Source: Xenophilus aerolatus (lineage in GTDB: Bacteria > Pseudomonadota > Gammaproteobacteria > Burkholderiales > Burkholderiaceae_C). Taken from it: a stretch of DNA of 64,000 nt. Location of the stretch: NCBI GenBank assembly GCA_029968055.1, contig JASCNX010000001.1:1302001-1366000 (forward strand). The letters run 5' to 3'. Made by a program: the position numbers and the translations under genes. The notes below the pieces were generated by a model, which was given only the letters and a program-made list of their open reading frames with translations, had not been told where the DNA came from and searched no databases. Shown here piece after piece: positions 2,991 to 19,708 of the stretch. Position 1 is the stretch's first letter, and each line of letters opens with the position of its first letter.

Positions 2991-3078
2991 GGGGCAGTCG
3001 CGAAGGGAGGGAAAGGGGAAACAGGGCCGACCCGCACGAGGCGTGCCGGTCGGGGCGTGGTGCGTGCGCTGCGCAGCG

Positions 3079-5091: not shown

Positions 5092-5149
5092 GAGCGCCTC
5101 CCCGCCCGCGCAGGCCGGTGGTCCCTCATCGGGTGGGGCAGGCTGTGCA

Positions 5150-6394: not shown

Positions 6395-6421
6395 AGGGTG
6401 CGCATTGTGGGCATGCCGGCA

Positions 6422-6453
6422 GCATCAATCCAACGAATTCATTTGATTGATGC
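6422..6453. promoter_or_regulatory. 32-bp near-perfect palindrome, probable LysR-type operator
   Basis: The outer arms GCATCAATC (6422-6430) and GATTGATGC (6445-6453) are perfect 9-bp inverted repeats. The centre is GAATTC (6435-6440) on the same axis, so 14 of 16 base pairs match. It lies in the 108-bp gap between the divergent dadA-like and LysR genes, about 30 bp before the first and 50 bp before the second. LysR regulators classically bind such dyads in the shared promoter region. Confidence 0.65.
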
Positions 6454-6502
6454 ATGAGGATTTCTGATTCACTCGTCCCGCCGGCGCCACAATGGTGCAG
6501 AC

Positions 6503-7396
6503 ATGAACCTCACCCTCCGCCAGATGCGTGCGTTCTCCGTCGTGGCACGCACCGCGAGCTTCACGCTCGCTGCCAAACAGCTGAACCTCACCCAGTCGGC
6601 CGTCAGCATGCTCGTGCAGCAACTGGAAGAGGAACTCGGCCTGAAGCTGTTCGACCGCACGCGCCATGCCGTCACCCTGACCGAGGGCGGGCAGCAGCTG
6701 CTGCCGCTGGCGCGTCGCATGCTGGACGATCTGCGCCAAATCGAGGAGGGCGCCAGCGACCTGCGGCTGCTCAAGAGCGGCGTGCTGCGCGTCGTCGCGC
6801 CGCAGCTGATGGCCTGCACCTGGGTGGCCGGCGCGCTGGCGCGCTTCGAGCAGGCACACCCCACCGTGGGCCTGCGCATCGTCGACGGCTCGGCCGACGA
6901 CATCGTGGGCGCGGTGCGGCGCGGCGACGCCGAACTGGGCATCGGCCCCGAGCGCGTGACGGGCGAGGACGTGACGCGCAGCTTCCTCATGCATGTGCCC
7001 ATGCGGCTGGTGTGCGCGACGAGCCACCCGCTGGCGGGGCGGCAGACCGTCTCGTGGCGCGATCTGCGCGACGAGCGCTGGGTCGTGTACTCCGGCGACT
7101 TCAGCCGCTACGTCGAGCAGCGGCTGCACGAACACGACGCGTCGCTGTCGATGCAGACCGCGACCGAGGTGCGTTACCTCACCACCGCGCTGGCGCTGGT
7201 CGGCGCCGGGCTGGGCGTGGCGATGGTGCCGGACTACGCGCGCACCTTCGCCGGCAACTTCGGCATCCGCTTCCTCGCGCTGCGCTCGCCGGCCCTGAAC
7301 CGGGAGTTCTTCGTGTACCAGCGCCGCAGCCTGGCACTGTCGCCCGCGGCACAGGCTTTCGCGACCTTGCTGCAGGCGCAGTCGCACCGGCCATGA
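6503..7396 (+). CDS. LysR family transcriptional regulator
   Basis: 297 residues, the usual LysR length. The N-terminal winged helix-turn-helix is clear: MRAFSVVARTASFTLAAKQL, then NLTQSAVSMLVQQLEEELG and FDRTRHAVTLTEGG over residues 8 to 65. The effector-binding domain follows from about residue 90 (LRVVAPQLMACTWV, with GLGVAMVPDYAR near residue 240). It is divergent from the dadA-like operon with a strong palindrome between them, so it most likely controls that operon and itself in response to the substrate. It converges with the tautomerase gene, leaving only 18 bp between the stops. Confidence 0.93.
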   Translation: MNLTLRQMRAFSVVARTASFTLAAKQLNLTQSAVSMLVQQLEEELGLKLFDRTRHAVTLTEGGQQLLPLARRMLDDLRQIEEGASDLRLLKSGVLRVVAPQLMACTWVAGALARFEQAHPTVGLRIVDGSADDIVGAVRRGDAELGIGPERVTGEDVTRSFLMHVPMRLVCATSHPLAGRQTVSWRDLRDERWVVYSGDFSRYVEQRLHEHDASLSMQTATEVRYLTTALALVGAGLGVAMVPDYARTFAGNFGIRFLALRSPALNREFFVYQRRSLALSPAAQAFATLLQAQSHRP

Positions 7397-7414: not shown

Positions 7415-7780
7415 TCAGGCCAGGCGCGTCTTGCGGTAGCTGGCGCGGTCCATGTCGACGACCTCGACGCTCAGGTGGGCCTGCAGGCCCGGCGGCAGCG
7501 GCGGCATGTGCTCGAGCATCCCTTCGGTGACCCGATCGCTGAAGTCCTTCTTCGCCTGCTCGTCGCGGCCGGCCAGGATGCGCACGGTGACGTGAATGAA
7601 CGCCCGCCCCGACTCGGCCAGGCCGACCCGAAAGGCCTCGACGCAGACCACCCTCGCCTTCAGGTCCGCCTCGTCGGTGACTTCCGTGCTGCCGGCCAGC
7701 CGCCGCGTCACGGCGGCCAGCATGGCGTCCAGCGGCAGGCCCTTCAGGTTGGGGGTGTACTCGATGACGATGTGGGGCAT
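7415..7780 (-). CDS. CHMI-family tautomerase (5-carboxymethyl-2-hydroxymuconate isomerase-like)
   Basis: 121 residues starting MPHIVIEYTPNL. After Met removal the Pro becomes the N-terminal catalytic base of the tautomerase superfamily. Length and the pattern EAFRVG, then FIHVTVRILAGRDEQAKKD fit the trimeric CHMI (HpaF) branch rather than the short 4-oxalocrotonate tautomerases. HpaF isomerises a muconate-type product in homoprotocatechuate meta-cleavage, but no other hpa genes are visible. Here it is the last gene of the array that begins with the Rieske oxygenase, 65 bp after the amidohydrolase, so it probably tautomerises a later intermediate of that pathway. The exact substrate is unknown. 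Confidence 0.82.
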   Translation of the reverse strand: MPHIVIEYTPNLKGLPLDAMLAAVTRRLAGSTEVTDEADLKARVVCVEAFRVGLAESGRAFIHVTVRILAGRDEQAKKDFSDRVTEGMLEHMPPLPPGLQAHLSVEVVDMDRASYRKTRLA

Positions 7781-7845
7781 GGGAATCGGATGGCTTTGGA
7801 AAACACGGCTCGAGGCTGGAGCGACCGCCCTGGCCAGCCAGGACC

Positions 7846-9597
7846 TCAGGGCGCAGCGCGGTACACCGAGCGGCCGCCGACGATCGTTTCCATCGCGACG
7901 ATGTCCTTGATCTTTTCTTCCGGCACGCTGAGGTAGTCCGCCGACAGGACCACCATGTCGGCCAGCTTGCCGACCTCGATCGATCCCTTGCGCTTTTCCT
8001 CGAAGGTCAGGTAGGGCCCCGCGTTCGTGTACAGGCGAAGCGCCTCCTCCCGCGAGATCTTCTGGTCTGCACCATAGACCACGCCGCGCGGGTCCTTGCG
8101 CGTCACCATGAGGTACATGCCGATGAAGGGGTTGAGCAGGTTGACCTCGTTGTCGGTGCCGGCGGAGGTGCGCTCCATGCCCAGGACGTCGAGCAGGCGC
8201 CGCGTGGGCACCGCACGGTTGGCGAGCAGCGGTCCCATGTAGCGCTCGACGGTGCCCGCCTTGTCCCACAGGAACGCGTTCTGGGCATCGATGCGCACGT
8301 CGAGGCTGCGTGCGGTCTCGATCTGGTCGGCTGCGACCAGGCTGCCATGCACGACGCTGAAGCGCCGGCCCGCGATGGAGCTGTCGGCATTGGCGGCCGC
8401 ATAGGCCTTCAGCGTGAGGTCCACCGCCGCGTCACCCACGGCGTGCGTGTGGACGCGCCAGCCGTTCCTGTTGGCGGCCCGCACCATGCGCACGTAGGCC
8501 TCGGGATCGACGGCAACCATCCCGTGGTTGTTGGGTTCGTTGGCATAGTTGCCGCGGATGTACGCGGATTTGAGGGTCATGCCACCGTCGGACACCAGCT
8601 TGATGCCCGCCAGCCGGGCCCAGTCGTTGCCCTGCCCGTCCTTGAACGGCGCCGCCTTCAGCCTGGCCTCGAAGTCGGGCGCTGCCGCCGCGGGGAACAG
8701 CCAGAACATGCCGGCCCGGACCGTGGCCTGGCCGCGCTCGGCCGCGGCGTAGTACGCCTTGATCTGCTCTTCGTTCAGACCGGCGACCACCGTGCTGGTG
8801 ATGCCCGAGCGGTTGTACACGCGCTGGCCCGCGATGTTCTGCGCCACGCGCTGTTCAAAGCTGGGTGGCGGAATGATCTTCTCGACGAGCTGCAGCGCGC
8901 TCGATTCGACGACGCCGGTCGGCTCGCCATTGGCGTCGCGGTGGATCTTGCCGCCCACGGGGTCGGGTGTGTCCCGCGTGATGCCCGCGGCGGCGAGCGC
9001 CTTGCTGTTGGCCATCGCGAAGTGGCCGACCGTCTGCACGTAGACCGGGTGGTCCGGCGCCACCGCGTCGAGTTCCTGGCGCGTCAGGTAGCGCTGTTCC
9101 TTCAGCTGCGATGGCGGGTGCCAGCGGCTCGTCTGCACCCACTGGCCCGCGGGGATGGACTTGGTGCGAATGAAGTCGCCGATGATGGCCTGCGCCTCGG
9201 CCACGGTCCGCGCGCGGATCACCTGGGCCGTGGTCTCGACGGTGCCCGCGCCGTCCATGTGCGTGTGTGCATCCATCAGGCCCGGCACGACCGTGCGTCC
9301 CTGCAGATCGACGACCCGGGTCTGCGGGGCGATCAGTTCACGGATGCGCTCGTCGGTGCCGACCGCCACGAAGGCGCCGTCCTTGATCGCGACGGCCTGT
9401 GCGATCGAGAAGTTCTTGTCGGCGGTGATGATCCTGCCGTTGACATAAGCCACGTCGGGCTGAGCGGCAGGGCGATGCGCACAGCCCACCGCCAGCACGG
9501 CGGCGGCGATCGCCAGGGAGCTGATTGCAAGGTGGCGGCCACGGGTGCCCGTGGCATCGCCCGGGCGACCGGATTGGGAAGAGGCTTGGGTTTTCAT
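7846..9597 (-). CDS. YtcJ-like metal-dependent amidohydrolase, predicted lipoprotein
   Basis: 583 residues. The N-terminus has a positively charged segment, a hydrophobic core and the lipobox LAVGC with Cys39, predicting a lipid-anchored protein outside the cytoplasm. VVPGLMDAHTHMDGAG carries the metal-binding HxH. WRVHTHAVGDAAVD and GTDNEVNLLNPF supply further His and Asp ligands of the amidohydrolase_3 (YtcJ/NfdA) family. Relatives hydrolyse N-substituted formamides and other amides. AAAGGAC precedes the start. It follows livF by 116 bp on the same strand. An exported amidase could release the amine that the importer then takes up; this is inference. Its periplasmic location contrasts with the cytosolic enzymes of the cluster. 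Confidence 0.87.
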   Translation of the reverse strand: MKTQASSQSGRPGDATGTRGRHLAISSLAIAAAVLAVGCAHRPAAQPDVAYVNGRIITADKNFSIAQAVAIKDGAFVAVGTDERIRELIAPQTRVVDLQGRTVVPGLMDAHTHMDGAGTVETTAQVIRARTVAEAQAIIGDFIRTKSIPAGQWVQTSRWHPPSQLKEQRYLTRQELDAVAPDHPVYVQTVGHFAMANSKALAAAGITRDTPDPVGGKIHRDANGEPTGVVESSALQLVEKIIPPPSFEQRVAQNIAGQRVYNRSGITSTVVAGLNEEQIKAYYAAAERGQATVRAGMFWLFPAAAAPDFEARLKAAPFKDGQGNDWARLAGIKLVSDGGMTLKSAYIRGNYANEPNNHGMVAVDPEAYVRMVRAANRNGWRVHTHAVGDAAVDLTLKAYAAANADSSIAGRRFSVVHGSLVAADQIETARSLDVRIDAQNAFLWDKAGTVERYMGPLLANRAVPTRRLLDVLGMERTSAGTDNEVNLLNPFIGMYLMVTRKDPRGVVYGADQKISREEALRLYTNAGPYLTFEEKRKGSIEVGKLADMVVLSADYLSVPEEKIKDIVAMETIVGGRSVYRAAP

Positions 9598-9713
9598 GTT
9601 GGTTGTGTCCTTTTTGGATGAGGCGATACCTGCCCTGAACGGCCTGAAGGGCCCGAAATCGTGTCGTGAATCCAGCAGGCGCTGCGGCGAGCGCCAGCCC
9701 GGCCGTGGCCTGC

Positions 9714-10424
9714 TCAGGCAGGCATGCCCACGCCGAGCAGCCGGTCGAGTCGCTCCGGATCCGCGGCCAGCGCCGCACTGGGCCCGGCGTGCACCACCGT
9801 GCCGCGTTCGAGCACGATCGCCTGATGCGTCATCTCCAGCGCCAGCACGGGATGCTGCTCCACGACGATGGAGGCCAGGCCTTCGCTCTCGCACAGGCGG
9901 CGAATGGCCCGCGCGAGCTCTTCCACGATGATGGGCGCCAGGCCCTCCATGGGCTCGTCGAGCAGCAGCAGCGTGGGGTTGGTCATCAGGGCGCGGCCGA
10001 TGGCCAGCATCTGCTGTTCGCCGCCCGAGAGCTGGTTGCCGTAGTTGGCGCGGCGTTCCTTCAGGCGCGGGAACAGGCCGTAGACACGGTCGAGGCCCCA
10101 CGCCCCCGGCCGGGCGACCACGCCCAGGTTCTCTTCCACCGTCAGCGAGGGAAACACCTCACGCTCCTGCGGCACCCAGCCCAGCCCGGCGCGCACGCGC
10201 TGGTGTGCAGGCAGGCGGGTGATGTCCTGCCCGCGCCAGCGGACCGTGCCGCCCGTGACGCGGGTGTTGCCCATCAGCGTCTCGAGCGTGGTGGTCTTGC
10301 CCACGCCGTTGCGCCCGAGGATGGCCAGGCTTTCGCCGGCCTGCAGCGCGAAGCCGAGGCGGTCGAGCACGACCGCGTTGCCGTAGCCGGCGGTGACGGC
10401 ATCGAAGGCCAGCAGTTCAGGCAT
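9714..10424 (-). CDS. livF: Branched-chain-amino-acid-type ABC transporter ATPase LivF
   Basis: 236 residues. Walker A GRNGVGKTT lies near residues 37-45, the ABC signature is LSGGEQQM, and Walker B is LLLLDEPMEGLAP, the last being typical of LivF. Its start overlaps the livG stop by eight bases. It supplies one of the two nucleotide-binding subunits of a Liv/HAAT importer whose other parts are encoded upstream. Homologues carry amino acids, urea, amides or aromatic acids. Its place in a Rieske/ligase cluster points to a catabolic substrate rather than leucine. Confidence 0.94.
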   Translation of the reverse strand: MPELLAFDAVTAGYGNAVVLDRLGFALQAGESLAILGRNGVGKTTTLETLMGNTRVTGGTVRWRGQDITRLPAHQRVRAGLGWVPQEREVFPSLTVEENLGVVARPGAWGLDRVYGLFPRLKERRANYGNQLSGGEQQMLAIGRALMTNPTLLLLDEPMEGLAPIIVEELARAIRRLCESEGLASIVVEQHPVLALEMTHQAIVLERGTVVHAGPSAALAADPERLDRLLGVGMPA

Positions 10425-11190
10425 CGGTGGCGTCCTTTCGGATGTTGACGTGGGTCTTGCCGAGGTAGACCTCGCGCACGCGCGGATCGCGGCCGATCTC
10501 GGCCGGCGTTCCCTCGGTCAGGATGCGTCCGGCCACCAGCACCGAGATGCGCCGCGCGAAGCGGAACACGAGGTTCATGTCGTGCTCGATGAAGAGGACG
10601 CTGATGTCCTGGGGCAGTTCGGCGATGGCCTCGAAGAGCTCGCCGCTCTCGTCCACCGGCACGCCGGCCGCCGGCTCGTCCAGCAGCAGGATGCGCGGCC
10701 GCGCGGCCAGCGCCAGGGCGATCTCGAGCAGCCGCTGCTTGCCGTAGGCCAGCTCGGCCACCGGCACGTTGGCCAGTGCGCCCAGGCGCAGCCGGTCCAG
10801 CAATGCATGGGCTTCGTCGAACGCCGCCTTGCTGCGGCCGAAGGGCCGCCACCAGGTCGCCCCCTGCCCTTCGCGCTCGTGGATGGCCAACACCACCGAG
10901 AGCAGCGGCGTGAGGCTGGGGAACAGCGTGTTGATCTGGAAGGTGCGCGCCAGGCCGCCGCGTGCGCGCCGGTCCGCGGGCCAGCCGGTGATGTCCTCGC
11001 CGTTCATGCGAATGCTGCCGGCGCTGGGCCGATAGATGCCCGTCAGCAGGTTGATCAGCGTGGTCTTGCCGGCGCCGTTGGGCCCGATCAGGGCCTGGCG
11101 TGCGCCGGGCTCCAGCGACAGGCCGACGTCGGCCACGGCCTGGAATGCGCCAAAGCTGATGCCCAGGCCCTGCGTCTGCAATGCGGTCAT
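10417..11190 (-). CDS. livG: Branched-chain-amino-acid-type ABC transporter ATPase LivG
   Basis: 257 residues from the ATG at 11190, preferred over one 24 bases upstream because GGGAGG lies just before it. Walker A GPNGAGKTT is near residues 36-44, the signature is the LivG-type LAYGKQRLLE, and Walker B is ILLLDEPAAGV. The C-terminus has the VREVYLG tail found in LivG proteins. It overlaps livF and follows livM by 55 bp. It pairs with LivF to energise the importer. Confidence 0.94.
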   Translation of the reverse strand: MTALQTQGLGISFGAFQAVADVGLSLEPGARQALIGPNGAGKTTLINLLTGIYRPSAGSIRMNGEDITGWPADRRARGGLARTFQINTLFPSLTPLLSVVLAIHEREGQGATWWRPFGRSKAAFDEAHALLDRLRLGALANVPVAELAYGKQRLLEIALALAARPRILLLDEPAAGVPVDESGELFEAIAELPQDISVLFIEHDMNLVFRFARRISVLVAGRILTEGTPAEIGRDPRVREVYLGKTHVNIRKDATDA

Positions 11191-11245
11191 GGCGCCCTCC
11201 CCGCCCTGCGGCATGCGCTGCGCACGCCGTGTTGGGTCACGGCGC

Positions 11246-12211
11246 TCATCGTGCCTGCTCCCTCGTGCGGATGCGGCGCGACAGCGCGCCCATGATGCCG
11301 CCGCGGCCCAGCATCACGGCCGCGATCAGGAAGATGCCGAGCCAGAACATCCAGTACTCCGGATTCATGTCGGCGAACCAGTCGTGCACGAGCATGTAGA
11401 CGATCGCGCCGACCAGGCCGCCATACAGCCGGCCCGTGCCGCCGAGCACCAGGATGATCAGGATCTCGGCCGAGCGGTTGAAGCCGATGGACTCGATGCC
11501 CACGAACTGCGTGGTCTGCGCCAGCAGCGCGCCCGCCACGCCGGCCACCGCTGCCGAGAAGGCGTAGGCCATGCGCAGCCGTGCCTCCACCGGCGTGCCG
11601 ATGGCCAGCATGCGCTTGCGGTTGTCATGGATGCCGCGCAGCGCCAGGCCGAAGGGCGAGCGCAGCACCAGCCGCACCAGCATGAACATCGCCAGCACGA
11701 CGGCGAAGGCGTAGACGAAAGCGGTCTTGCCGAAGAGGTCGAACGCGAACACGCCGAGGACCGGCTTCACCTCCATGCCCTGCAGGCCGTCGGTGCCGCC
11801 CGTGATGCCCGAGAGCCGGTTGGCCAGCTCGGCCAGCAGCACGCACACGCCGATCGTGATCATCAGCCGCGTGAGGTCGGCACCGCGCACGATCAGGTAG
11901 CTCAGCAGGTAGCCGAGCACGCCCGCCACGACCAGTGCGGCCAGGAGGCCGCTGAAGGGCTCGCCCCAGCCGTGCTTGGCCAGCAGCCCTGCGGTGTACG
12001 CGCCCGCGCCGAAGAAGGCCGCGTGGCCCACGGTGAGGATGCCCGCATAGCCCAGCGCCATGTCCAGCGCCACGGCGAAGAGCCCGAAGATCAGGATCTG
12101 GCTGAGCAGCGTGAGGTGGTTGGGCGCGATGAAGTAGCTCGCGGCCAGCAACAGCCAGAACGCGATTTCGGCCGCGCGCAACTGGCCCGGCGAGAGGGTG
12201 ATGGCTTTCAT
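11246..12211 (-). CDS. livM: Branched-chain-amino-acid-type ABC transporter permease LivM
   Basis: 321 residues with about nine hydrophobic segments. The central DMALGYAGILTVGHAAFFGAGAY is the LivM signature preceding the ATPase-contact loop, and EARLRMAYAFSAAVAGVAGALLA lies in the second half. The start overlaps the livH stop by four bases (ATGA), showing tight coupling. With LivH it forms the inner-membrane channel. The residue order and length are normal, and no break is visible. Confidence 0.93.
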   Translation of the reverse strand: MKAITLSPGQLRAAEIAFWLLLAASYFIAPNHLTLLSQILIFGLFAVALDMALGYAGILTVGHAAFFGAGAYTAGLLAKHGWGEPFSGLLAALVVAGVLGYLLSYLIVRGADLTRLMITIGVCVLLAELANRLSGITGGTDGLQGMEVKPVLGVFAFDLFGKTAFVYAFAVVLAMFMLVRLVLRSPFGLALRGIHDNRKRMLAIGTPVEARLRMAYAFSAAVAGVAGALLAQTTQFVGIESIGFNRSAEILIILVLGGTGRLYGGLVGAIVYMLVHDWFADMNPEYWMFWLGIFLIAAVMLGRGGIMGALSRRIRTREQAR

Positions 12212-13068
12212 GCGAGCCCCTTCTTGGGAACGATGCCGTTCGGGCGCAGCAGCAGCATTCCGATCATGAAGACGTAGATCAGGAAGACGCCCGCCTCGGG
12301 CAGGTAGTACTTGCCTGCCACGTCGACCACGCCGACCAGCAGCGCGGCGATGAAGGGCCCGGTCACGGTGCCGGCCCCGCCCACGCAGACCACGATCAGG
12401 AAGTACACCAGGTACTTGAGCGGGAAGGAGGGCTCCAGGCCCAGCATGCCCAGGCTCAGCGCGCCGCCCAGGCCCGCCAGCCCGCAGCCCAGCGAGAAGG
12501 TCAGGAAGAACAGCCGCTGCACGTGGATGCCCGTGCCGCCGGCCACGCGCTGGTTGTCGACGGCCGCGCGCACCATCGCGCCGTAGCGCGTGCGGTTCAT
12601 CAGCTGCAGCAGCAGGACCAGCGTCGCCACGCCGCAGACGATGAGGAACAGCCTGTAGCGGCCCAGTTCAACGCCCGCGAAGGAGAACTGCCCCTGAAGC
12701 GCAGGCGGCAGGTGGAAGGGCAGCATGGTCGGCCCGAAGAAGTAGGTCAGCGCGGCGATCGACACGAACACCACGCCGATCGACAGCAGCACCTGGTCCA
12801 ACGGGTGCGCACGGTACAGCCGGCGGTAGAACACGACCTCGAGCACGGCGCCCAGCAGCGCCGCGGCCACGAAGGCCGCCACCAGGGCCAGCCCGTAGGG
12901 CACGCCCAGCCGATTCATGAGCACCGCCGCCGCGTACCCGCCCACGACCGCGAAGCTGCCGTGCGCGAGGTTGACGAAGTTCATCAAGCCCATGGTGATG
13001 GACAGGCCCACCGCCATGAGGAACAGGAGCATGCCGTAGGCCACCCCGTCGAAAAGGACGATTCCCAT
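12208..13068 (-). CDS. livH: Branched-chain-amino-acid-type ABC transporter permease LivH
   Basis: 286 residues, strongly hydrophobic, starting in a membrane helix (GVAYGMLLFLMAVGLSITMG). The conserved NFVNLAHGSFAVVGGY is the family motif after the first helix, and GGAGTVTGPFIAALLVGVVD lies near the end. It follows the solute-binding-protein gene by 74 bp and overlaps livM. It provides the second permease subunit. Confidence 0.93.
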   Translation of the reverse strand: MGIVLFDGVAYGMLLFLMAVGLSITMGLMNFVNLAHGSFAVVGGYAAAVLMNRLGVPYGLALVAAFVAAALLGAVLEVVFYRRLYRAHPLDQVLLSIGVVFVSIAALTYFFGPTMLPFHLPPALQGQFSFAGVELGRYRLFLIVCGVATLVLLLQLMNRTRYGAMVRAAVDNQRVAGGTGIHVQRLFFLTFSLGCGLAGLGGALSLGMLGLEPSFPLKYLVYFLIVVCVGGAGTVTGPFIAALLVGVVDVAGKYYLPEAGVFLIYVFMIGMLLLRPNGIVPKKGLA

Positions 13069-13142
13069 TGGATTCCCGATGCGAGGCGAGGGGCGCCCTG
13101 CGTGCGCCCCGTGCCGGAGTCAGCGCCCGGTGGGCGCAAGCG

Positions 13143-14321
13143 TCACTTGGCTTCCTTGGCCGGGTCCTTGACGCGGTCGAACTTGTCGAACTCCACGTTG
13201 ACCAGCTTGCCGTTGACCTTCTCGGTCTTGCGGATGTAGACCGTCTGCACGATGTCGCGCGTGGCGGCATCGATCTCGATCGGGCCGCGCGGGCTCTCGA
13301 AGGCCAGGCCCTTGAGAGCGTCCATCACCTTGTCGCCATCCGCATTGCCGCCGGTCTTCTTGAGGGCCAGGTCGATCGCGGCCATGGCGTCGTAGGCCGT
13401 CACGGCGAAGTAGCTCGGACGCAGGCTCGTGCCGAACTGCGCCTCGAAGTCCTTCACGAACTTCTGGTTCTTGGCCGAGGGATGGGCATAGGAATAGTGG
13501 TGGCTGGTCACCAGGCCCAGGGCGACGTCGCCGGTGGCGTCGAGGTAGCTGTCGTCGGTGGCTTCGCCGGTGGCGTAGAGCTTGATGCCGGCCTCGTCCA
13601 TGCCGCGCTCCTTCCACACCTTCAGGAAGGCGGGCGGCATCACGCCCGAGGGGAAGAAGAAGAACACGGACTGCGGCTTGGCGTCCTTGATGCGCTGCAC
13701 GTAGGCCGAGAAGTCCGGGTTGTTCATCGGCGTGCGCAATTCGCCGACCACCTTGCCGCCGCCGCCCTCGAAGGCCTTCTTGAAGGCCGTGAGCGAGTCC
13801 GTGCCCGAGGCGTAGTCGGCCACCACCACATAGGCTTCCTTGGTGCCGTTGCGCAGCATCCAGCGGGCCATCGGGTCGGACACCTGCTGCACCGTGAACG
13901 ACAGCCGCGCGACATAGGGCGAGCTGGTCGTGATGGCCGAGGACGAGGCGTTCATGACCACCGTGGGAATCTTGGCCTGCGTCGCCACCGCAGCGACCGC
14001 GTACGCGTTGGGGCTGAAGTCCAGGCCGGTCAGGATCTGCACCTTGTCGCGCACGACCAGTTCCTGCGCGATGCGCTTCGCAGCGTCCGGGGCGGGCCCG
14101 GCCGTGTCCTTCTTGATGACCTCGACGGGCCGGCCGGCGATCTTGTTGCCGTGCTCCTTGAGGTACAGCGCGACGCCGGCGTCGAACTGGCGCCCGTAGT
14201 CGGCGTAGGGGCCGGAATAGGTGCCGATCAGGCCGATCTTGAGGGCGTCCTGGGCGTGCGCCGCGCCGGCAACGCAGGCCAGCGCCGCGACGGCCAGGAG
14301 AGTACGTTTGGTCATCTTCAT
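13143..14321 (-). CDS. Periplasmic solute-binding protein of the Liv-type ABC importer
   Basis: 392 residues from the ATG at 14321, where MKMTKRTLLAVAALACVAGA forms a signal peptide ending at AHAQ near residue 22. An in-frame upstream start would put 34 unlikely residues before it. DALKIGLIGTYSGPYADYG opens a type I periplasmic fold of the Peripla_BP_6 family, with the conserved ITGLDFSPNAYAV. Unlike LivK, such proteins in catabolic clusters often bind aromatic acids, amides or amines. It lies 22 bp after the ferredoxin reductase gene, placing import and oxidation in one transcript. Ligand is unknown. Confidence 0.92.
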   Translation of the reverse strand: MKMTKRTLLAVAALACVAGAAHAQDALKIGLIGTYSGPYADYGRQFDAGVALYLKEHGNKIAGRPVEVIKKDTAGPAPDAAKRIAQELVVRDKVQILTGLDFSPNAYAVAAVATQAKIPTVVMNASSSAITTSSPYVARLSFTVQQVSDPMARWMLRNGTKEAYVVVADYASGTDSLTAFKKAFEGGGGKVVGELRTPMNNPDFSAYVQRIKDAKPQSVFFFFPSGVMPPAFLKVWKERGMDEAGIKLYATGEATDDSYLDATGDVALGLVTSHHYSYAHPSAKNQKFVKDFEAQFGTSLRPSYFAVTAYDAMAAIDLALKKTGGNADGDKVMDALKGLAFESPRGPIEIDAATRDIVQTVYIRKTEKVNGKLVNVEFDKFDRVKDPAKEAK

Positions 14322-14343
14322 CGTGGAACTCCGTGGGAAGAAC

Positions 14344-15594
14344 TCAGCCCGCAGGCCGGGGAATGGAAAAAGGCTTGAGGTCGCTGGCCGGATCGGCCAG
14401 CACCTCGACGGGGATGGGAGCACCCTGGGCGATCAGCTTGCGGGCCAGCATGTGCTCGGCCGGACGGTTGACCGAATGGGCCGCGGAGACGCGGCCCTCG
14501 CGCAGGTAGAACAGGGTGAAGCGGTGGTCGGCGGGCGTGCCGCGCAGCACGGCTTGGTCGCCCGGCGCAGGCAGCCCCGCCATCTGGAACTTCAGATCGT
14601 GCTGGTCGCTCCAGAACCAGGGCACGGCCGTCAGCGGCTGCGGCTGGCCGACCAGCACCGACGCCGCGGCGCGCGCGCCGTCGTTGGCAGCCTGGATGGA
14701 TTCGAGCCGCATGCGCACCGTGCCCGGTGCTGCGGCGGACGGCAGCGCCATGTTGGCGACGTCGCCGGCTGCCAGCACCCCCGGTGCGCTGGTGCGGCCC
14801 AGCGCATCGACCAGGATGCCGCCCTCGCATGCGATGCCCGCCGCCTCGGCCAGCTCCACATTGGGCAGCACACCGATGCCCAGCACCACGAGGTCGCATT
14901 CGAGCTGGCGTCCGTCGTCGAGGCGCACCGCCGCCACATGGCCCTGCGCGTCGCCCACGAGGGCCACGACGCCCCGCCCGAGTTCCAGCGTGACGCCGCG
15001 TGCGCGATGCGCATCCGCCACGTAGTCGGACATGAACGCGGGGAAGCTGCGCGCGAGCAGGCGCGGCTGGCCTTCGACCACGGTGACGCTGGCCCCGGCG
15101 CCCGTGAGCGCGGCCGCCACCTCCAGCCCGATGAAGCCGCCGCCGATGACGCAGGCCCGCCGGCTGCGGCCCAGCGCCGCCTGCACGGCAACGGCATCGT
15201 CCAGCGTGCGCAGCTGGTGCACGCCATCGAGATCGGCACCGGGCACGGGCAGCGGCCGGCAGCGCGCGCCGGTGGCGAAGGCGAGCCAGCCGTAGTCCAG
15301 CGCGCGGCCGTCGGCCAGTTGCACGCGCTGCGACGACAGATCGACGTTGGTGACGCGCGTGCCCAGGCGCAGGTCGATGCCCTGCTGGGCATAGAAGTCC
15401 GGACCGCGCAGCGCGAGCTGGTCGGCGGCAGTCTTGCCGGCCAGCAGGCCCTTGGACAGCGGCGGGCGCTGGTACGGCGCGTGGTGCTCGTCTCCGAGCA
15501 GCATGATCGGCGCCTCGAAGCCCAGCTCGCGGGCGGACGCCGCGAGCTGCACTCCCGCATAGGAGGCGCCGACGATGACCAGGGCGTCGGCCAT
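14344..15594 (-). CDS. FAD-dependent ferredoxin reductase (putidaredoxin/rhodocoxin reductase family)
   Basis: 416 residues. The N-terminal VIVGASYAGVQLAASAREL binds FAD, PPLSKGLLAG is the family loop, and CVIGGGFIGLEVAAALTGAG near residue 150 binds NAD(P)H. APGVLAAGDVANM is the second FAD contact. The C-terminal domain includes PWFWSDQHDLKFQMAGL, the typical active-site region of ferredoxin reductases. Its ATG shares one base with the ferredoxin stop (TGATG). It should pass electrons from NAD(P)H to the neighbouring [2Fe-2S] ferredoxin and so to the Rieske oxygenase. Confidence 0.93.
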   Translation of the reverse strand: MADALVIVGASYAGVQLAASARELGFEAPIMLLGDEHHAPYQRPPLSKGLLAGKTAADQLALRGPDFYAQQGIDLRLGTRVTNVDLSSQRVQLADGRALDYGWLAFATGARCRPLPVPGADLDGVHQLRTLDDAVAVQAALGRSRRACVIGGGFIGLEVAAALTGAGASVTVVEGQPRLLARSFPAFMSDYVADAHRARGVTLELGRGVVALVGDAQGHVAAVRLDDGRQLECDLVVLGIGVLPNVELAEAAGIACEGGILVDALGRTSAPGVLAAGDVANMALPSAAAPGTVRMRLESIQAANDGARAAASVLVGQPQPLTAVPWFWSDQHDLKFQMAGLPAPGDQAVLRGTPADHRFTLFYLREGRVSAAHSVNRPAEHMLARKLIAQGAPIPVEVLADPASDLKPFSIPRPAG

Positions 15595-15917
15595 CAGACC
15601 TGCGTCTCCGGCACGCGCACCGTGAGGCCGTCGAGCTCCGCCGTCACGGGGATCTGGCAGCTGAGCCGGCTGTTGGGCGCGCGCTCGCTGGCCGTGCCGT
15701 CCAGCAGTTCGTCCTCCATCTCGTCCGGCGGTGTGAGCCGGCCCAGGAAGGCCTCGTCGACGTAGACATGGCAGGTCGCGCAGGAGCAACTGCCGCCGCA
15801 CTCGGCGTCGATGCCGCGGATGTTGTGCTGGATGGCGGTTTCCATCACGCTGGCGCCGGTCTTGGCCTCGACGCTGCGCGTGCTGCCGTCCTTGAGGATG
15901 TAGTGGATCGTGGGCAT
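15594..15917 (-). CDS. [2Fe-2S] ferredoxin, adrenodoxin/putidaredoxin type
   Basis: 107 residues. Ligand cysteines are Cys40, Cys46, Cys49 and Cys87, spaced C-x5-C-x2-C-x37-C as in adrenodoxin-type ferredoxins; Cys44 is an extra non-ligand. LTPPDEMEDELLDG is the acidic partner-docking helix. It is encoded between the glutamine-synthetase-like gene (24 bp gap) and the reductase (one-base overlap). It should shuttle single electrons from the reductase to the Rieske oxygenase. Using a vertebrate/putidaredoxin-type ferredoxin with a single-subunit Rieske oxygenase gives a three-component system. Confidence 0.94.
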   Translation of the reverse strand: MPTIHYILKDGSTRSVEAKTGASVMETAIQHNIRGIDAECGGSCSCATCHVYVDEAFLGRLTPPDEMEDELLDGTASERAPNSRLSCQIPVTAELDGLTVRVPETQV

Positions 15918-15941
15918 GGGAATCTCGGACCTTGTCGGCGG

Positions 15942-17390
15942 TCAGAACATGTCGAAGTACTCGCGGTGCTCCCACTCGGTGACTTCGAGGTTGAAGCGCG
16001 CGATCTCGGCCTGCTTGATGTGGCAGTAGTAGTCGACGAAGTCCTGTCCCAGCCCGTCGACGAGCGCGGCGTCCGCCTGCAGGGCGGCCAGCGCGGCATC
16101 GAGCGTGCGGGGCAGTTCCTCGGCCGGCGTCTCGTAGGGCGCGTCCGCCGACGGGCCGGGATCCAGCCCGCGCTCGACACCGTCCAGGCCCGAGATGAGC
16201 TGCGACGCGAGGTACAGGTAGGGATTGGCCGTCGGCTCGCCGATCCGGTTCTCGATGCGCGACGCCTCGTCGCCCGGCGCCCCGAGCACCCGCAGCATGG
16301 CCCCGCGGTTGTCCTGCGCCCAGATGGCGCGGTCGGGCGCGAGCGAGAACGGCCGGTAGCGCCGGTAGCCGTTGAGCGTCGGGCTCGCCAGCGCGGCGGC
16401 ACCGCGGGCGTGGGCCTTCAGGCCGGCCAGGTAGTGCATCCCCAGCGGACTCAGCGCGGCTGTCTCGTCGCCGGTGGCCTCGGGCATGAAGGCGTTGTCG
16501 CCGCCCTTCGCGTGGCGCAGCGACTGGTGCAGGTGCCAGCCGCTGGACATGACGCTCGGAATGCGCGGGCGGCACATGAAGGTGGCGTGGTAGCCATGGC
16601 GCTGGCAGATCTGCTTGATCGCACTGCGCAGCAGCACCATCGTGTCGGCAGGCGCCATGCCCGCCGTGGGGCCGAACACCAGCTCGAACTGGCTCGGGCC
16701 GAACTCGATCTCCAGCGAGTGCAGCGGCAACCCCAGCGCCTGGAGCTGGGTGCGCAGCAACTCCATGAGCGCGTCGACGCGGTCGTAGCGCAGCTCGGTC
16801 AGGTACTGGTGGCCGTGGGTGAGCAGCGAGACGGCCGGTGGCGTGCCCGGCTGGCCCGCGTCGGCCAGGCGCATCTGCGCATCGTCGAGCTTGAAGACGT
16901 GGAACTCGACCTCCAGACCGGCCACGAATTCGAGGCCGCGCGCGGCCAGCCGGTCGATCGAGCGCCGCAGGATCCGCCGCGTGTCGAAAGGGCAGTGCCG
17001 GCCGTCCTTCATGAACGCATCGCACAGCACCCAGCCGGTGCGCGGCGCCCAGGGCAGCATGCGGAAGGTGGACGGGTCGGCCAGCACGGTGAAATCGGCG
17101 CCGCCCTGCAGCCCCTCCAGCGCGAAGCCCCCGCCGGCCGAGAACACGGGAAACACCGAGCGGTGCGAGGTGTCCTTGGCCAGCAGCGTGGTCGTGAGGT
17201 TCACGCCCCGCGCCAGCGCGCCCCGGGCGGCTTCGGCGACCAGGGTCTTGCCGCGCAGCACACCGTGCTGGTCGGCCCACGCGAAGCGCAGCACGTCGAG
17301 CTCGCCCGCGTCGATGCGCCCGACGATCTCGCTCGCCTGGGCCTGCTGTTCGTCGCTCCAGAGACCGAAGCGTTCGGCGAAGGTGCTCAT
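15942..17390 (-). CDS. Glutamine-synthetase-like gamma-glutamyl-amine ligase
   Basis: 482 residues. The N-terminal beta-grasp region has FAWADQHGVLRGKTL. The catalytic domain has GLEVEFHVF for the metal-binding Glu, then EIEFGPSQFELVFGP, HATFMCRPR, SSGWHLHQSL, and NRIGEPTANPYLYLAS. These are the landmarks of GlnA-like ligases such as PuuA, IpuC and the aniline ligases TdnQ/AtdA1, rather than the biosynthetic enzyme, which carries an adenylylation-site tail absent here. Such enzymes join glutamate to an amine with ATP. One base separates its start from the Rieske stop. This points to gamma-glutamylation of the oxygenase substrate; the amine is unknown. Confidence 0.88.
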   Translation of the reverse strand: MSTFAERFGLWSDEQQAQASEIVGRIDAGELDVLRFAWADQHGVLRGKTLVAEAARGALARGVNLTTTLLAKDTSHRSVFPVFSAGGGFALEGLQGGADFTVLADPSTFRMLPWAPRTGWVLCDAFMKDGRHCPFDTRRILRRSIDRLAARGLEFVAGLEVEFHVFKLDDAQMRLADAGQPGTPPAVSLLTHGHQYLTELRYDRVDALMELLRTQLQALGLPLHSLEIEFGPSQFELVFGPTAGMAPADTMVLLRSAIKQICQRHGYHATFMCRPRIPSVMSSGWHLHQSLRHAKGGDNAFMPEATGDETAALSPLGMHYLAGLKAHARGAAALASPTLNGYRRYRPFSLAPDRAIWAQDNRGAMLRVLGAPGDEASRIENRIGEPTANPYLYLASQLISGLDGVERGLDPGPSADAPYETPAEELPRTLDAALAALQADAALVDGLGQDFVDYYCHIKQAEIARFNLEVTEWEHREYFDMF

Positions 17391-17391
17391 C

Positions 17392-18714
17392 TCAGACCGC
17401 CAGGCGGGCCGAGGCCCAGTCCGATGCCTGCCGGCGGGCCAGGTCGGCCTCTTCGCAGTAGCTGGCGGCCTTGTCGGCCGCCGCGACGCCGTCGATGGAC
17501 GGCGGCCCCGTCAGCGTGCCGGCGTCATGCGCGGTGGGCTGCATGGGCAGCGCCTCGCCCGCCTGCGCCGCCTCGATGGCCTTCACCAGCATCCGGCGGT
17601 ACAGCATGATGCCCTTGTCGGTGGTGCCGAGGTGCTCGCGCGTGCGGTCCTGGATCGGCCCCATCGATTCGCAGGCCCACTGGTCGTGCACGTTGATGTC
17701 CTCGCCCATGCCGGTGTAGGTCTGCTTCAGTTGCTCCTCGACGCTGTAGCCGTACTCGTTGCGCTTGTTCTTGCGCGAGGTGTACAGCGGCAGCTCGATG
17801 GTCTTCAGGCGCTGCTCGCGCATCTGCGCCTTGTCCACCGGGCCGGTGAAGCTGGTGAAGATCGCATACCAGTAGCAATGCGTGTCGTCCACGGGCACAT
17901 GCCACTGCGAGATCGTCATCTCCGAACTCATCGGGATCACGAAGGCCTGCGGGAAGACGACGTTCGTCACCCGCACGTGCGTCTGCGCTTCGGAGAGCTT
18001 GCGCAGCGTGGTCAGCTTCATGCCGTAAGGCGCGGGCTCGGCGGCGATGTCGGGCCGGTCGTATTCGCGCAGCACCTGGGTGATGGCCAGGTCGGAGTCG
18101 GCCGAGGCGCCGCGGAACTGCTTGCCGTAGCTTTCGGAGGTGTCCTCGTCCTCGTAGAAGCGATGCAGGAAGGACGCGTGCGCCGGGTCCATGCCCACCT
18201 CGAGCGCCTGCAGCCAGTTGCACTCCCACAGGCCCTTGAACGCGAAGGTGTGGCTGTCGGGCGCGACGAAGCAATCGAACTCGGGAAAGGCCGGCGGCTC
18301 ACCCTCGCCGATGTACGCGAAGACGATGCCGCTTCGCTCCACCACCGGGTAGGCGCCCTGGCGGATGCGCGTGCACAGCTTGCTGCCCGCGGGCTCGGCC
18401 GGCGTCTCCAGGCATTGGCCGGTCGCATCGAACAGCCAGCCGTGGAATGCGCAGCGCAGTCCGCCGTTCTCGAGCCGGCCATAGGCCAGGTCGGCGCCGC
18501 GGTGGGGGCAGTCGCGGTCGAGCAGGCCGAGACGGCCGGACTCGTCACGGAACAGGACGAAATGCTGGCCCATGAGTTGCACCGGGCGCAGCGGGCGCGG
18601 CCCGCGCAACTCCTCGGACAGGGCCACGGGCTGCCAGTAGCGGCGCAGCAGGGTGCCAGCCGGCGTGCCGCGTCCGACGCGGGTGATGAGATCGTTCTGT
18701 TCGGCGCTGATCAT
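17392..18714 (-). CDS. Rieske non-heme iron oxygenase, phthalate-dioxygenase-like single-subunit alpha
   Basis: 440 residues. The Rieske cluster ligands are Cys69, His71, Cys88 and His91 (CPH-x16-CAFH). The catalytic mononuclear iron motif is Glu172-x3-Asp176-x2-His179-x4-His184 within LEVGMDPAHASFLH. Asp176 is the residue that bridges the two metal sites in neighbouring subunits. Length and the absence of a beta-subunit gene place it with phthalate dioxygenase, vanillate demethylase and N-demethylases, which work as alpha-only trimers. It heads the minus-strand array and has its ferredoxin and reductase alongside. Reaction could be ring dihydroxylation, hydroxylation or N/O-dealkylation. Confidence 0.92.
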   Translation of the reverse strand: MISAEQNDLITRVGRGTPAGTLLRRYWQPVALSEELRGPRPLRPVQLMGQHFVLFRDESGRLGLLDRDCPHRGADLAYGRLENGGLRCAFHGWLFDATGQCLETPAEPAGSKLCTRIRQGAYPVVERSGIVFAYIGEGEPPAFPEFDCFVAPDSHTFAFKGLWECNWLQALEVGMDPAHASFLHRFYEDEDTSESYGKQFRGASADSDLAITQVLREYDRPDIAAEPAPYGMKLTTLRKLSEAQTHVRVTNVVFPQAFVIPMSSEMTISQWHVPVDDTHCYWYAIFTSFTGPVDKAQMREQRLKTIELPLYTSRKNKRNEYGYSVEEQLKQTYTGMGEDINVHDQWACESMGPIQDRTREHLGTTDKGIMLYRRMLVKAIEAAQAGEALPMQPTAHDAGTLTGPPSIDGVAAADKAASYCEEADLARRQASDWASARLAV

Positions 18715-18976
18715 CGTGAAGCTCCAAGCCTTTCAGTCAATGCATTCAGTTGTATGCAATGGGATGCATTGTCGCGAAAAGTGATTCTGCGTCAAACGAT
18801 TTTTGCGGGAGATCAATGCACTATTTCGATACATGGCGCACTGAAACGGCCAGAATTCCAAAGTCACCGTGGTTTTCACCTATTGATGCATGCATGATCC
18901 AGGCCAGCAGAAACATCATGCGTGCATACTTCGACGCACCTAGAATTTCTTCCGCTCATTGCATACAAGGAGAGCC
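18715..18976. promoter_or_regulatory. Divergent control region between Rieske array and GntR gene, with repeated TGCAT-type boxes
   Basis: This 262-bp gap holds two perfect inverted copies of a 12-mer, TTGTATGCAATG at 18750-18761 and its complement CATTGCATACAA at 18957-18968. The first is framed by a dyad CAATGCAT (18738-18745) and ATGCATTG (18764-18771). Further TGCAT words occur at 18816-18820, 18886-18895 (ATGCATGCAT) and 18923-18928. One 12-mer is about 36 bp before the oxygenase start; the other overlaps the Shine-Dalgarno of the GntR gene. The pattern fits a GntR operator set that controls both directions. It is relatively AT-rich compared with its surroundings. Confidence 0.6.
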
Positions 18977-19708
18977 ATGGATTCCCAACAGTCTCGTGTC
19001 CTGGTTCGACTGCGCGACCTCATCCTCAAGGGCGAGTTCGGCCCCGGCGAGCGGCTTGCAGAAATCCCCCTGGCCGAGAAGCTGGGCGCTTCACGCACGC
19101 CCGTGCGTCTCGCACTCACGAGCCTGGAGCACGAGGGCCTGATCGAGCCCTCGCCCGCCGGCGGCTACCAGATGCGGCGCTTCACCTCGCAGGAGATTGC
19201 GGATGCGATTCGCGCACGAGGCGTCATCGAAGGCTTTGCGGCCCGCCTGCTGGCGGAAGACGGCGCGCCCCGCCAACTGCTGCGCGAACTGCACGAGTGC
19301 CTGGATGAAGGCGACAAGGTCGTGAACAAGCCCACGATGGAGTTGGACGATTACGCCGGCTATGTGGAGATGAACGACCGCTTCCATGCCCTCATCATCC
19401 AGGGCTGCGGCAACGCGTCCGTCCGGCGCATCATGGAGATGCTCGACAGCCAGCCCTTCGCGGCGCCCAGCGCCATGCTGCCCATGCAGTCGTCGATGCG
19501 CGAAGGCCAGCAGTGGATGCAGCAGGCCCATCGCACCCACCACGCGCTGGTGCAGGCGATCGAACGGGGCCAGGGCTCGCGGGCCCAGGCCCTCGGCGAG
19601 GAGCATGTGGAGATCGCCCGCATGAACCTCGACTACGCGCTCGAACGCCCGGAGCTGGCGGCCGAACTGATGCCCGGCATGAAACTGGTGGCGGGCCGCG
19701 GCCGCTGA
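18977..19708 (+). CDS. GntR family (FCD domain) transcriptional regulator
   Basis: 243 residues from the ATG at 18977, preceded by AAGGAG at 18967-18972. The N-terminal winged helix is seen in RLRDLILKGEFGPGERL, then LAEKLGASRTPVRLALTSLE over residues 10 to 60. The C-terminal FCD domain has the metal or ligand residues in MNDRFHALIIQGCGN and HRTHHALVQAI. FadR-like FCD regulators usually repress catabolic genes until an organic acid binds. It is divergent from the Rieske array and carries a candidate operator over its own ribosome site, so autoregulation together with control of the array is likely. Confidence 0.93.
   Translation: MDSQQSRVLVRLRDLILKGEFGPGERLAEIPLAEKLGASRTPVRLALTSLEHEGLIEPSPAGGYQMRRFTSQEIADAIRARGVIEGFAARLLAEDGAPRQLLRELHECLDEGDKVVNKPTMELDDYAGYVEMNDRFHALIIQGCGNASVRRIMEMLDSQPFAAPSAMLPMQSSMREGQQWMQQAHRTHHALVQAIERGQGSRAQALGEEHVEIARMNLDYALERPELAAELMPGMKLVAGRGR

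What the first reader, a model, noticed from the sequence alone, without database searches (positions are those of the whole stretch)
7415..19708. Rieske oxygenase and glutamine-synthetase-like ligase in one array with a Liv importer: possible gamma-glutamylation-coupled amine degradation
Seen: 11 consecutive minus-strand genes (single-subunit Rieske oxygenase, GlnA-like ligase, adrenodoxin-type ferredoxin, ferredoxin reductase, five Liv importer genes, lipoprotein amidohydrolase, CHMI tautomerase) opposite a GntR regulator; several stops and starts overlap. Known: aniline and chloroaniline routes (TdnQ/DcaQ) and isopropylamine/putrescine routes (IpuC, PuuA) join glutamate to an amine before oxidation. 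Inferred: this array uses the same masking step but a phthalate-dioxygenase-type oxygenase with no beta subunit, a putidaredoxin-style electron chain and a dedicated ABC importer. No class I amidotransferase-like hydrolase (TdnT) is visible, so release of glutamate would have to happen otherwise. I do not know a described pathway with this set.
Basis: partly seen in the sequence, partly recalled or inferred. Interest (0 to 1): 0.78.

Follow-up and report, generated by a model that had tools for sequence, protein, structure and literature searches.

The report
Importer, ligase, oxygenase for aromatic amines
A row of bacterial genes that probably takes up an acidic aromatic amine such as 4-aminobenzoate, caps its nitrogen with glutamate and then oxidises it; the core resembles the known sulfanilate-degrading (sad) system, here joined to its own importer.

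Summary
In detail: 11 minus-strand genes (RO, GS-like ligase GSL, Fdx, FdR, SBP-LivHMGF, lipoprotein amidohydrolase, CHMI) face a GntR gene. The glutamate-masking idea is supported by sequence; "no described pathway" is not. The closest described system is the sad operon (4-aminobenzenesulfonate 3,4-dioxygenase), not the aniline type. RO and GSL are 62.5% and 57.6% identical to a pair on pSA3 of the sulfanilate degrader Novosphingobium resinovorum SA1. GSL groups with that protein, apart from GlnA, PuuA and aniline/naphthylamine ligases. RO is directly upstream of GSL in 78 of 80 related loci; the other two are cut there. A tunnel phenylalanine of the aniline/naphthylamine ligases is lysine (K72) in 96 of 98 aligned GSLs, suiting an acidic ring. 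The "Liv" binding protein's closest solved relatives (34-50% identity) include three with 4-hydroxybenzoate bound. Best reading: import of a para-substituted aminobenzoate (most likely 4-aminobenzoate), gamma-glutamylation, then dioxygenation to a catechol (protocatechuate; a lig-type operon lies elsewhere in the genome) with release of the glutamyl group as glutamine. The amidotransferase missing here is dispensable in the homologous naphthylamine system. Substrate and product are inferred, not shown.

The parts
17392..18714 (-). RO: single-subunit Rieske oxygenase, 440 aa, SadA-like
   Evidence: PF00355, PF19301; 62.5% to the SA1 RO over 435 aa; motifs CPHRG...CAFH 69-91, DPAHASFLH 176-184; closest solved: isophthalate and phthalate dioxygenases
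15942..17390 (-). GSL: glutamine-synthetase-like amine ligase, 482 aa, SadB-like, K72 type
   Evidence: PF00120 270.6 bits; best PDB 8wwu 415 bits against 181 for the next; tree; residues
15594..15917 (-). Fdx: putidaredoxin/adrenodoxin-type [2Fe-2S] ferredoxin, 107 aa
   Evidence: PF00111; best PDB 4ltu, 3hui, then putidaredoxin; 44% to SA1
14344..15594 (-). FdR: FAD/NAD(P)H ferredoxin reductase, 416 aa
   Evidence: PF07992, PF14759; best PDB 3lxd, 3fg2, putidaredoxin reductase 1q1r; 43% to SA1
13143..14321 (-). SBP: periplasmic binding protein, 392 aa, of the 4-hydroxybenzoate-binding type
   Evidence: PF13458; 50% to 4ey3, 40% to 4evs, 34% to 4evq, all three with 4-hydroxybenzoate; AF2 model mean pLDDT 90.4
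12208..13068 (-). LivH-type permease, 286 aa
11246..12211 (-). LivM-type permease, 321 aa
10417..11214 (-). LivG-type ATPase, 265 aa
9714..10424 (-). LivF-type ATPase, 236 aa
7846..9597 (-). Amidohydro_3 protein, 583 aa, with an N-terminal stretch ending LAVGC (lipobox by eye); optional, 10 of 80 loci
   Evidence: PF07969 303.8 bits
7415..7780 (-). CHMI-family tautomerase, 121 aa; optional, 9 of 80 loci; a relative stands next to GSL in SA1
   Evidence: PF02962 60.9 bits
18977..19708 (+). GntR/FCD regulator, divergent from the RO gene (start at 18959 or 18977)
   Evidence: PF00392, PF07729; divergent directly upstream in 32 of 80 loci
18715..18976 (.). intergenic region between the RO and GntR genes, presumed to hold promoter and operator
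   Evidence: position only; no promoter scan was run

Best explanation
A sad-type operon: gamma-glutamylation-coupled Rieske dioxygenation of an acidic aromatic amine, with its own importer. (1) SBP-LivHMGF imports a para-substituted benzoate-like amine. (2) GSL uses ATP and glutamate to make the gamma-glutamyl amide on the aryl nitrogen, with K72 of the neighbouring subunit's loop pairing with the ring carboxylate (or sulfonate). (3) NADH or NADPH, FdR and Fdx feed RO, which dioxygenates the carbon bearing the N-glutamyl group and its neighbour; the adduct collapses to a catechol and the glutamyl amide leaves as glutamine, so no amidotransferase is needed. Most likely substrate: 4-aminobenzoate, giving protocatechuate, which the genome's lig-type operon would open. 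Shown here: gene set, homology, phylogeny, residue pattern, synteny. Inferred: substrate, product, order of steps. My odds: sad-type glutamylation plus oxygenation 0.8; acidic ring 0.7; 4-aminobenzoate in particular 0.45.
For: RO, GSL, Fdx, FdR and CHMI are homologous to genes of the sulfanilate degrader SA1 (62.5, 57.6, 44.3, 43.3 and 29.7% identity), where the pair lies about 2 kb from a maleylacetate reductase gene, an enzyme of the 4-sulfocatechol route that PMC5632844 describes in SA1. Tree of 55 rows: WINDOW and the SA1 ligase share a 42-row group (95/88), and the aniline/naphthylamine-type ligases form their own group (99/96). ATP, Glu and metal ligands of GS are kept, while the Glu-flap E327 is L350 and the ammonia-site D50 falls in a loop (A90, alignment there unsure), as PMC11335346 reports for glutamyl-organic-amine synthetases. 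NpaA1 tunnel F75 is K72 in 96 of 98 GSLs; the 2 exceptions (L087, L133) are not RO-linked. In 50 further loci 49 have K, 47 of them with an RO of this type within the flank, and the single F (L187) stands with an aniline-type alpha subunit and a GAT (partly the same contigs as before). SBP: closest solved relatives bind 4-hydroxybenzoate, and RPA0985, 40% identical, is stabilised by 29.5 C by 4-hydroxybenzoate (passage of PMC3223731). NpaA3A4A5 turns gamma-glutamyl-1-naphthylamine directly into the diol, without NpaA2. In Cupriavidus, Caballeronia and Methylobacterium nodulans the RO-GSL-Fdx-FdR set stands with a nitroreductase and a PnbB-family (4-hydroxylaminobenzoate lyase) gene, which is 4-nitrobenzoate-to-protocatechuate chemistry. 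The own genome has a LigB-family gene (262 bits) inside what reads by eye as a lig/pmd operon.
Against: No activity, growth or transcript data for this operon. No substrate-specific neighbour in the window itself. The SBP could carry 4-hydroxybenzoate or vanillate, which need no ligase. Relatives differ in neighbours: 6 of the 24 loci re-called (all of the ~50%-identity clade) have a gentisate 1,2-dioxygenase gene, Bradyrhizobium loci lie next to a box (benzoyl-CoA) cluster (30 of 80 loci carry its CoA ligase), and L014/L029/L129 carry a 3-hydroxyanthranilate-dioxygenase-type gene and RidA; 4-aminobenzoate-to-protocatechuate does not explain these. PnbB-family co-occurrence (10 of 14 genomes with GSL of 70% or more identity against 56 of 285 others, Fisher p 7e-5) does not single out 4-nitrobenzoate metabolism: the own genome's PnbB-family gene lies in its box cluster. 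That the SA1 pair is the functional sad pair, and that the Hydrogenophaga loci L118-L120 are sad, I infer from strain phenotype, neighbours and homology; I saw no experiment on them.
Confidence: 0.55

Rival explanations
1. Same machinery, another acidic aromatic amine: 3-aminobenzoate, anthranilate, an aminosalicylate or sulfanilate itself.
For: The nearest described system acts on 4-aminobenzenesulfonate; the ~50%-identity clade has 3-hydroxybenzoate 6-monooxygenase and gentisate dioxygenase genes in the cluster, which fit 3-substituted or salicylate-type acids better than 4-aminobenzoate.
Against: The SBP's closest solved relatives hold para-substituted benzoates; nitroreductase and PnbB-type neighbours point to the para series.
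Confidence: 0.3
2. Mask, hydroxylate, unmask: RO puts one hydroxyl on the gamma-glutamylated ring, a hydrolase removes glutamate, and the resulting aminophenol is opened by a 3-HAO-type enzyme and deaminated by RidA.
For: L014, L029 and L129 hold RO-GSL with a 3-HAO-type gene, RidA and a class I GATase; a GATase also ends the operon in other relatives.
Against: L029 and L129 show no Fdx or FdR like the window's; the window array has neither 3-HAO nor GATase; the characterised homologous systems lose the nitrogen on dioxygenation.
Confidence: 0.12
3. Neutral-aniline degradation as the first reader framed it (TdnQ/DcaQ-like masking of aniline or chloroaniline), with a substituted oxygenase.
For: GSL is 47% identical to the ligases of aniline-type clusters on pLME1 and SRS16 and shares their general fold.
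Against: K72 against F in those ligases, separate groups in the tree, unrelated oxygenase subtype (27% over 199 aa), SBP of the hydroxybenzoate type.
Confidence: 0.07
4. The oxygenase acts on an unmodified benzoate (for example a para-substituted lignin acid) and GSL only assimilates nitrogen.
For: SBP relatives bind 4-hydroxybenzoate; RO relatives are phthalate and isophthalate dioxygenases.
Against: RO and GSL are side by side in 78 of 80 loci; GSL lacks the GS Glu-flap residue; the genome has a separate GlnA.
Confidence: 0.05

Closest known systems
sad operon (4-aminobenzenesulfonate 3,4-dioxygenase system) of Hydrogenophaga intermedia PBC; homologous locus on pSA3 of Novosphingobium resinovorum SA1
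   Same: Rieske oxygenase, GS-like protein and ferredoxin as in PBC; RO, GSL, Fdx, FdR and CHMI homologous to the SA1 locus
   Different: Here all four core genes are in one run with a Liv-type importer; in SA1 Fdx and FdR lie apart on the other strand; predicted carboxylate rather than sulfonate substrate; PBC sequences themselves were not available to me
Aniline/chloroaniline/naphthylamine dioxygenases (tdn, dca, atd, npa)
   Same: GS-like ligase masks the amine with glutamate before a Rieske oxygenase
   Different: alpha-beta oxygenase, GATase in the cluster, FNR-type reductase, F instead of K72
Phthalate / isophthalate dioxygenases of Comamonas testosteroni KF1 (7fjl, 9ina)
   Same: single-subunit RO fold and best structure matches, about 30-34% identity
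   Different: no ligase involved in those systems (recalled); RO model here has mean pLDDT 73.5 only
Rhodopseudomonas palustris 4-hydroxybenzoate binding proteins (4ey3, RPA0985 = 4evs, RPA0668 = 4evq)
   Same: SBP 34-50% identical
   Different: their operons have not been compared here
PuuA-type gamma-glutamylputrescine synthetase and biosynthetic GlnA
   Same: GS catalytic core
   Different: 28% identity; outside the GSL groups

Membership tests
sad-type aminoarene dioxygenase system | single-subunit Rieske oxygenase homologous to SadA | tested here: met
   62.5% over 435 aa to the SA1 RO; PBC SadA sequence not available
sad-type aminoarene dioxygenase system | GS-like protein encoded next to it and homologous to SadB | tested here: met
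   57.6% over 483 columns to the SA1 ligase; adjacent in 78 of 80 relatives; same group in the tree
sad-type aminoarene dioxygenase system | ferredoxin and reductase partners | tested here: met
   44% and 43% to the SA1 Fdx and FdR
sad-type aminoarene dioxygenase system | turnover of 4-aminobenzenesulfonate to 4-sulfocatechol | not testable with these tools
   needs enzyme or growth assay
sad-type aminoarene dioxygenase system | 4-sulfocatechol lower pathway (pcaH2G2, 4SLH, MAR) in the genome | not tested
   no search for these genes; two intradiol Dioxygenase_C matches exist in the genome but were not examined
aniline dioxygenase (tdn/dca/atd/npa) | alpha plus beta oxygenase subunits | tested here: not met
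   no beta gene among the 11; RO aligns to the pLME1 alpha at 27% over 199 aa only
aniline dioxygenase (tdn/dca/atd/npa) | GAT-like gene beside the ligase | tested here: not met
   absent from the array; a search of the own genome with the relatives' GATase gave nothing, without a positive control
aniline dioxygenase (tdn/dca/atd/npa) | ligase in the aniline/naphthylamine group with tunnel F75 | tested here: not met
   K72, other group
biosynthetic glutamine synthetase | catalytic D50 and Glu-flap E327 | tested here: not met
   A90 (alignment unsure) and L350; the separate own GlnA keeps both
PuuA / IpuC polyamine and alkylamine ligases | grouping with PuuA or IpuC | tested here: inconclusive
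   not with E. coli PuuA, but that row has a very long branch; IpuC sequence not obtained
Liv (HAAT) branched-chain amino-acid importers | binding protein for branched-chain amino acids | tested here: not met
   by homology only: closest solved relatives hold 4-hydroxybenzoate; leucine-binding proteins are at 17-24% identity; binding itself not testable here

The most novel reading that the evidence does not exclude
The widespread sad-type module is a natural route for 4-aminobenzoate (the folate building block): gamma-glutamyl-4-aminobenzoate is dioxygenated to protocatechuate, with a lysine in the ligase's amine tunnel selecting acidic rings and a dedicated 4-hydroxybenzoate-type ABC importer. 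Sulfanilate degradation in Hydrogenophaga and SA1 would be a recent use of this older pathway, as the authors of PMC5632844 suspected in general terms.
Probability: 0.4. Interest if true: 0.6.

Novelty: new variant of a known kind. Interest (0 to 1): 0.46.

Why it matters
Passages of PMC5632844 state that the sad operon is conserved in Hydrogenophaga strains with little exposure to xenobiotics and that its natural substrate is unknown. The importer type, the K72/F switch and the neighbours make that question directly testable, with 4-aminobenzoate as first candidate. If true, bacteria would have an aerobic route for a folate precursor through a glutamate cap, and a one-residue marker would tell acid-ring from neutral-ring amine ligases in genome annotation. 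GSL of this kind (E up to 1e-90) was found in 61 of 299 genomes of the family and 22 of 398 of the phylum at E up to 1e-80; these counts include some aniline-type ligases.

Tried and rejected
Rejected: the array as a tdn/dca-type aniline operon (membership table). Rejected: the lipoprotein amidohydrolase as the glutamate-releasing enzyme, because it carries an apparent lipobox (by eye), which would put it outside the cytoplasm, and occurs in 10 of 80 loci only; its closest solved relatives are uncharacterised hydrolases. Considered and dropped as proof: PnbB-family co-occurrence, since the own genome's copy sits in a box cluster. Considered: auxin (iad) catabolism as the context; the papers listed with iad and Rieske had no hit for 'glutamine synthetase' and I did not read them. 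Led nowhere: padloc and phrogs not used; Rieske-oxygenase model of middling quality (mean pLDDT 73.5), so no pocket comparison; region upstream of the window read by eye only; no IpuC, TdnQ or PBC SadB sequence could be had, so the ligases of pLME1 and SRS16 (which I labelled dcaQ from recall; the records say only glutamine synthetase family protein) stand in for TdnQ/DcaQ. Papers: PMC11335346 outline and abstract, introduction, discussion, section 7 and parts 2-3 of the results were read; PMC5632844, PMC6167471, PMC7142613 and PMC3223731 by passages. Searches for a described 4-aminobenzoate route with a GS-like ligase showed none in their listings; the library holds open-licence papers only, so this is no proof of absence. 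My statement that 8wwu is NpaA1 rests on the match of its first residues to the ligase of plasmid pJS3066.


Full report
WHAT IS THERE. Between 7415 and 18714 the minus strand carries RO, GSL, Fdx, FdR, SBP, LivH, LivM, LivG, LivF, an Amidohydro_3 protein and a CHMI-family tautomerase; a GntR/FCD regulator faces them at 18959/18977-19708. The genome has exactly two Gln-synt_C matches, this one and a GlnA 65% identical to E. coli GlnA. The genome's own family is Comamonadaceae by its nearest relatives (Xenophilus, Ottowia, Pseudorhodoferax records).

CONSERVATION. A scan of genome contigs with GSL gave 480 stretches, 463 of them relatives, of which the best 80 were kept. RO lies directly upstream of GSL (gap 254 bases at most) in 78 of 80; in L047 and L064 the locus is cut there. 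Fdx-FdR follow in order in 31 of 80, and SBP-LivH-M-G after these in 23 of 80. In Bradyrhizobium loci the pair stands alone with an IclR gene; L056, one of these, has Fdx-FdR divergent. So RO-GSL is the unit, and electron carriers, importer and hydrolases are attached variably. In the family 61 of 299 genomes, and in the phylum 22 of 398, hold a GSL relative at E up to 1e-90 and 1e-80.

WHICH LIGASE. The best PDB match is 8wwu with 415 bits, the next 181; its sequence is that of NpaA1, the 1-naphthylamine glutamylating enzyme of PMC11335346. GSL is 74.9% identical to a Polaromonas JS666 plasmid protein, 57.6% to the SA1 protein, 47% to ligases of aniline-type clusters, 42% to NpaA1, and 28% to E. 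coli GlnA and PuuA. In a 55-row IQ-TREE the seven F-type ligases form one group (99/96); 42 of 44 K-type rows, the window and SA1 included, form another (95/88); the last two K-type rows (L085 and Nitratireductor) are unresolved. The GS ligands for ATP, glutamate and metals are kept; E327 is L350, and D50 falls in a poorly aligned loop (A90). PMC11335346 reports loss of the corresponding residues in glutamyl-organic-amine synthetases (its text numbers the flap residue Glu357).

THE K72 SWITCH. In NpaA1, F75 of the neighbouring subunit's loop lines the amine tunnel, and F75A nearly abolishes aniline activity. At this column 96 of 98 GSLs have K, and the two with F (L087, L133) have no RO of this type beside them. 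SA1's ligase, from a degrader of the acidic amine sulfanilate, has K; pLME1, SRS16 and NpaA1 have F. Of 50 loci from the genome searches 49 have K, 47 of them with this RO inside the short flank (L180 and L184 without), and the one F (L187, on the dca-type plasmid of what by coordinates is Hydrogenophaga PBL-H3) has an aniline-type alpha subunit and GAT. I read K72 as a counter-charge for a ring carboxylate or sulfonate; this is inference, as no docking was done.

WHICH IMPORTER. The SBP model (mean pLDDT 90.4) matches best 4ey3 (4-hydroxybenzoate bound, 50% identity), 4eyg (title cut after 'v'; vanillate from recall), 4evs (RPA0985, 4-hydroxybenzoate, 40%), 4f06 (41%) and 4evq (RPA0668, 4-hydroxybenzoate, 34%); leucine-binding proteins come far below. 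RPA0985 and RPA0668 bind benzene compounds with one carboxyl group.

WHICH OXYGENASE. Closest solved structures are isophthalate and phthalate dioxygenases of Comamonas testosteroni KF1, whose substrates are aromatic acids. By the alignment R248, invariant in 17 relatives, stands at R244 of that phthalate dioxygenase; that R244 holds the carboxylate is recalled.

NEIGHBOURS IN RELATIVES. (a) Class I GATase in 10 of 80 loci and in JS666; a PuuD-like hydrolase in Caballeronia. (b) Cupriavidus L037-L040: nitroreductase gene next to RO; PnbB-family gene in L037-L039, in Caballeronia and in Methylobacterium nodulans. (c) Bradyrhizobium: benzoate-CoA ligase (30 of 80 loci) and BoxB (11 of 80) genes close by. 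(d) L014, L029, L129: 3-HAO-type, RidA, GATase. (e) The ~50%-identity clade: 3-hydroxybenzoate 6-monooxygenase and gentisate 1,2-dioxygenase, each in 6 of the 24 loci, both above the NCBIfam cut-offs. (f) SA1: CHMI gene beside GSL, maleylacetate reductase about 2 kb upstream of RO, Fdx-FdR and a glutaminase gene downstream. These contexts agree on aromatic acids and amines but not on one product, so substrate preference may differ between clades.

HOW IT WORKS. In the homologous naphthylamine system the gamma-glutamyl amide is the direct substrate of the oxygenase, the diol appears without the GAT-like protein, and that protein only reverses the ligation. Transferred to this operon: import, glutamylation, dioxygenation, loss of the glutamyl amide as glutamine. 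For 4-aminobenzoate the product would be protocatechuate. The genome holds a LigB-family gene with 262 bits at C3 in a cluster that reads by eye as ligAB with lower-pathway genes. Steps shown by experiment are those of other systems; for this one everything is homology.

AGAINST. No wet data; mixed neighbours; the PnbB statistic is confounded; the SA1 and Hydrogenophaga loci are assigned by inference; the empty GATase search had no control.

VERDICT. A real, conserved operon of the sad kind with an importer that points to para-substituted aminobenzoates. Interesting because it gives an open natural-substrate question a concrete, cheap test; not a new kind of chemistry.

Noticed in passing
window 1588-7396: A second set (RidA 1588-1989, TctC-type binding protein 1989-2990, hydantoinase/oxoprolinase 3079-5091, D-amino-acid-dehydrogenase-like 5150-6394, all minus; LysR 6503-7396 plus) adjoins the array. 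DAO-like and/or hydantoinase-like genes (over 50% identity) lie near RO-GSL in 13 of 80 loci in several arrangements; in Verticiella L034/L036 they sit between GntR and RO on the RO strand. A functional link, perhaps to a lactam or 5-oxoproline, is possible.
   Followed up: partly
window 3079-5295: The hydantoinase gene keeps the B part but only about 130 residues of the A part, against a 1215-aa A+B fusion in L034; A and B parts are separate in L023, L044, L130. It looks decayed or truncated in the window, and L004 shows the same short A part.
   Followed up: partly
L164 (own genome C2, about 113-127 kb): A PnbB-family (4-hydroxylaminobenzoate lyase) gene sits between box (benzoyl-CoA) genes, so the family name may mislead there.
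   Followed up: partly
L083 (SA1 pSA3): A folP (dihydropteroate synthase) gene and a glutaminase gene lie near the sulfanilate locus; folP would fit a cell that handles sulfonated analogues of 4-aminobenzoate.
   Followed up: no
L121-L128: A ~50%-identity RO-GSL-Fdx clade in the same family with gentisate-pathway genes and what read by eye as TRAP-transporter genes; its substrate is probably not that of the window's operon.
   Followed up: partly
L023, L029, L043, L044, L129: RO-GSL operons without any Fdx or FdR like the window's in the fetched stretch; the electron donor there is unknown.
   Followed up: partly
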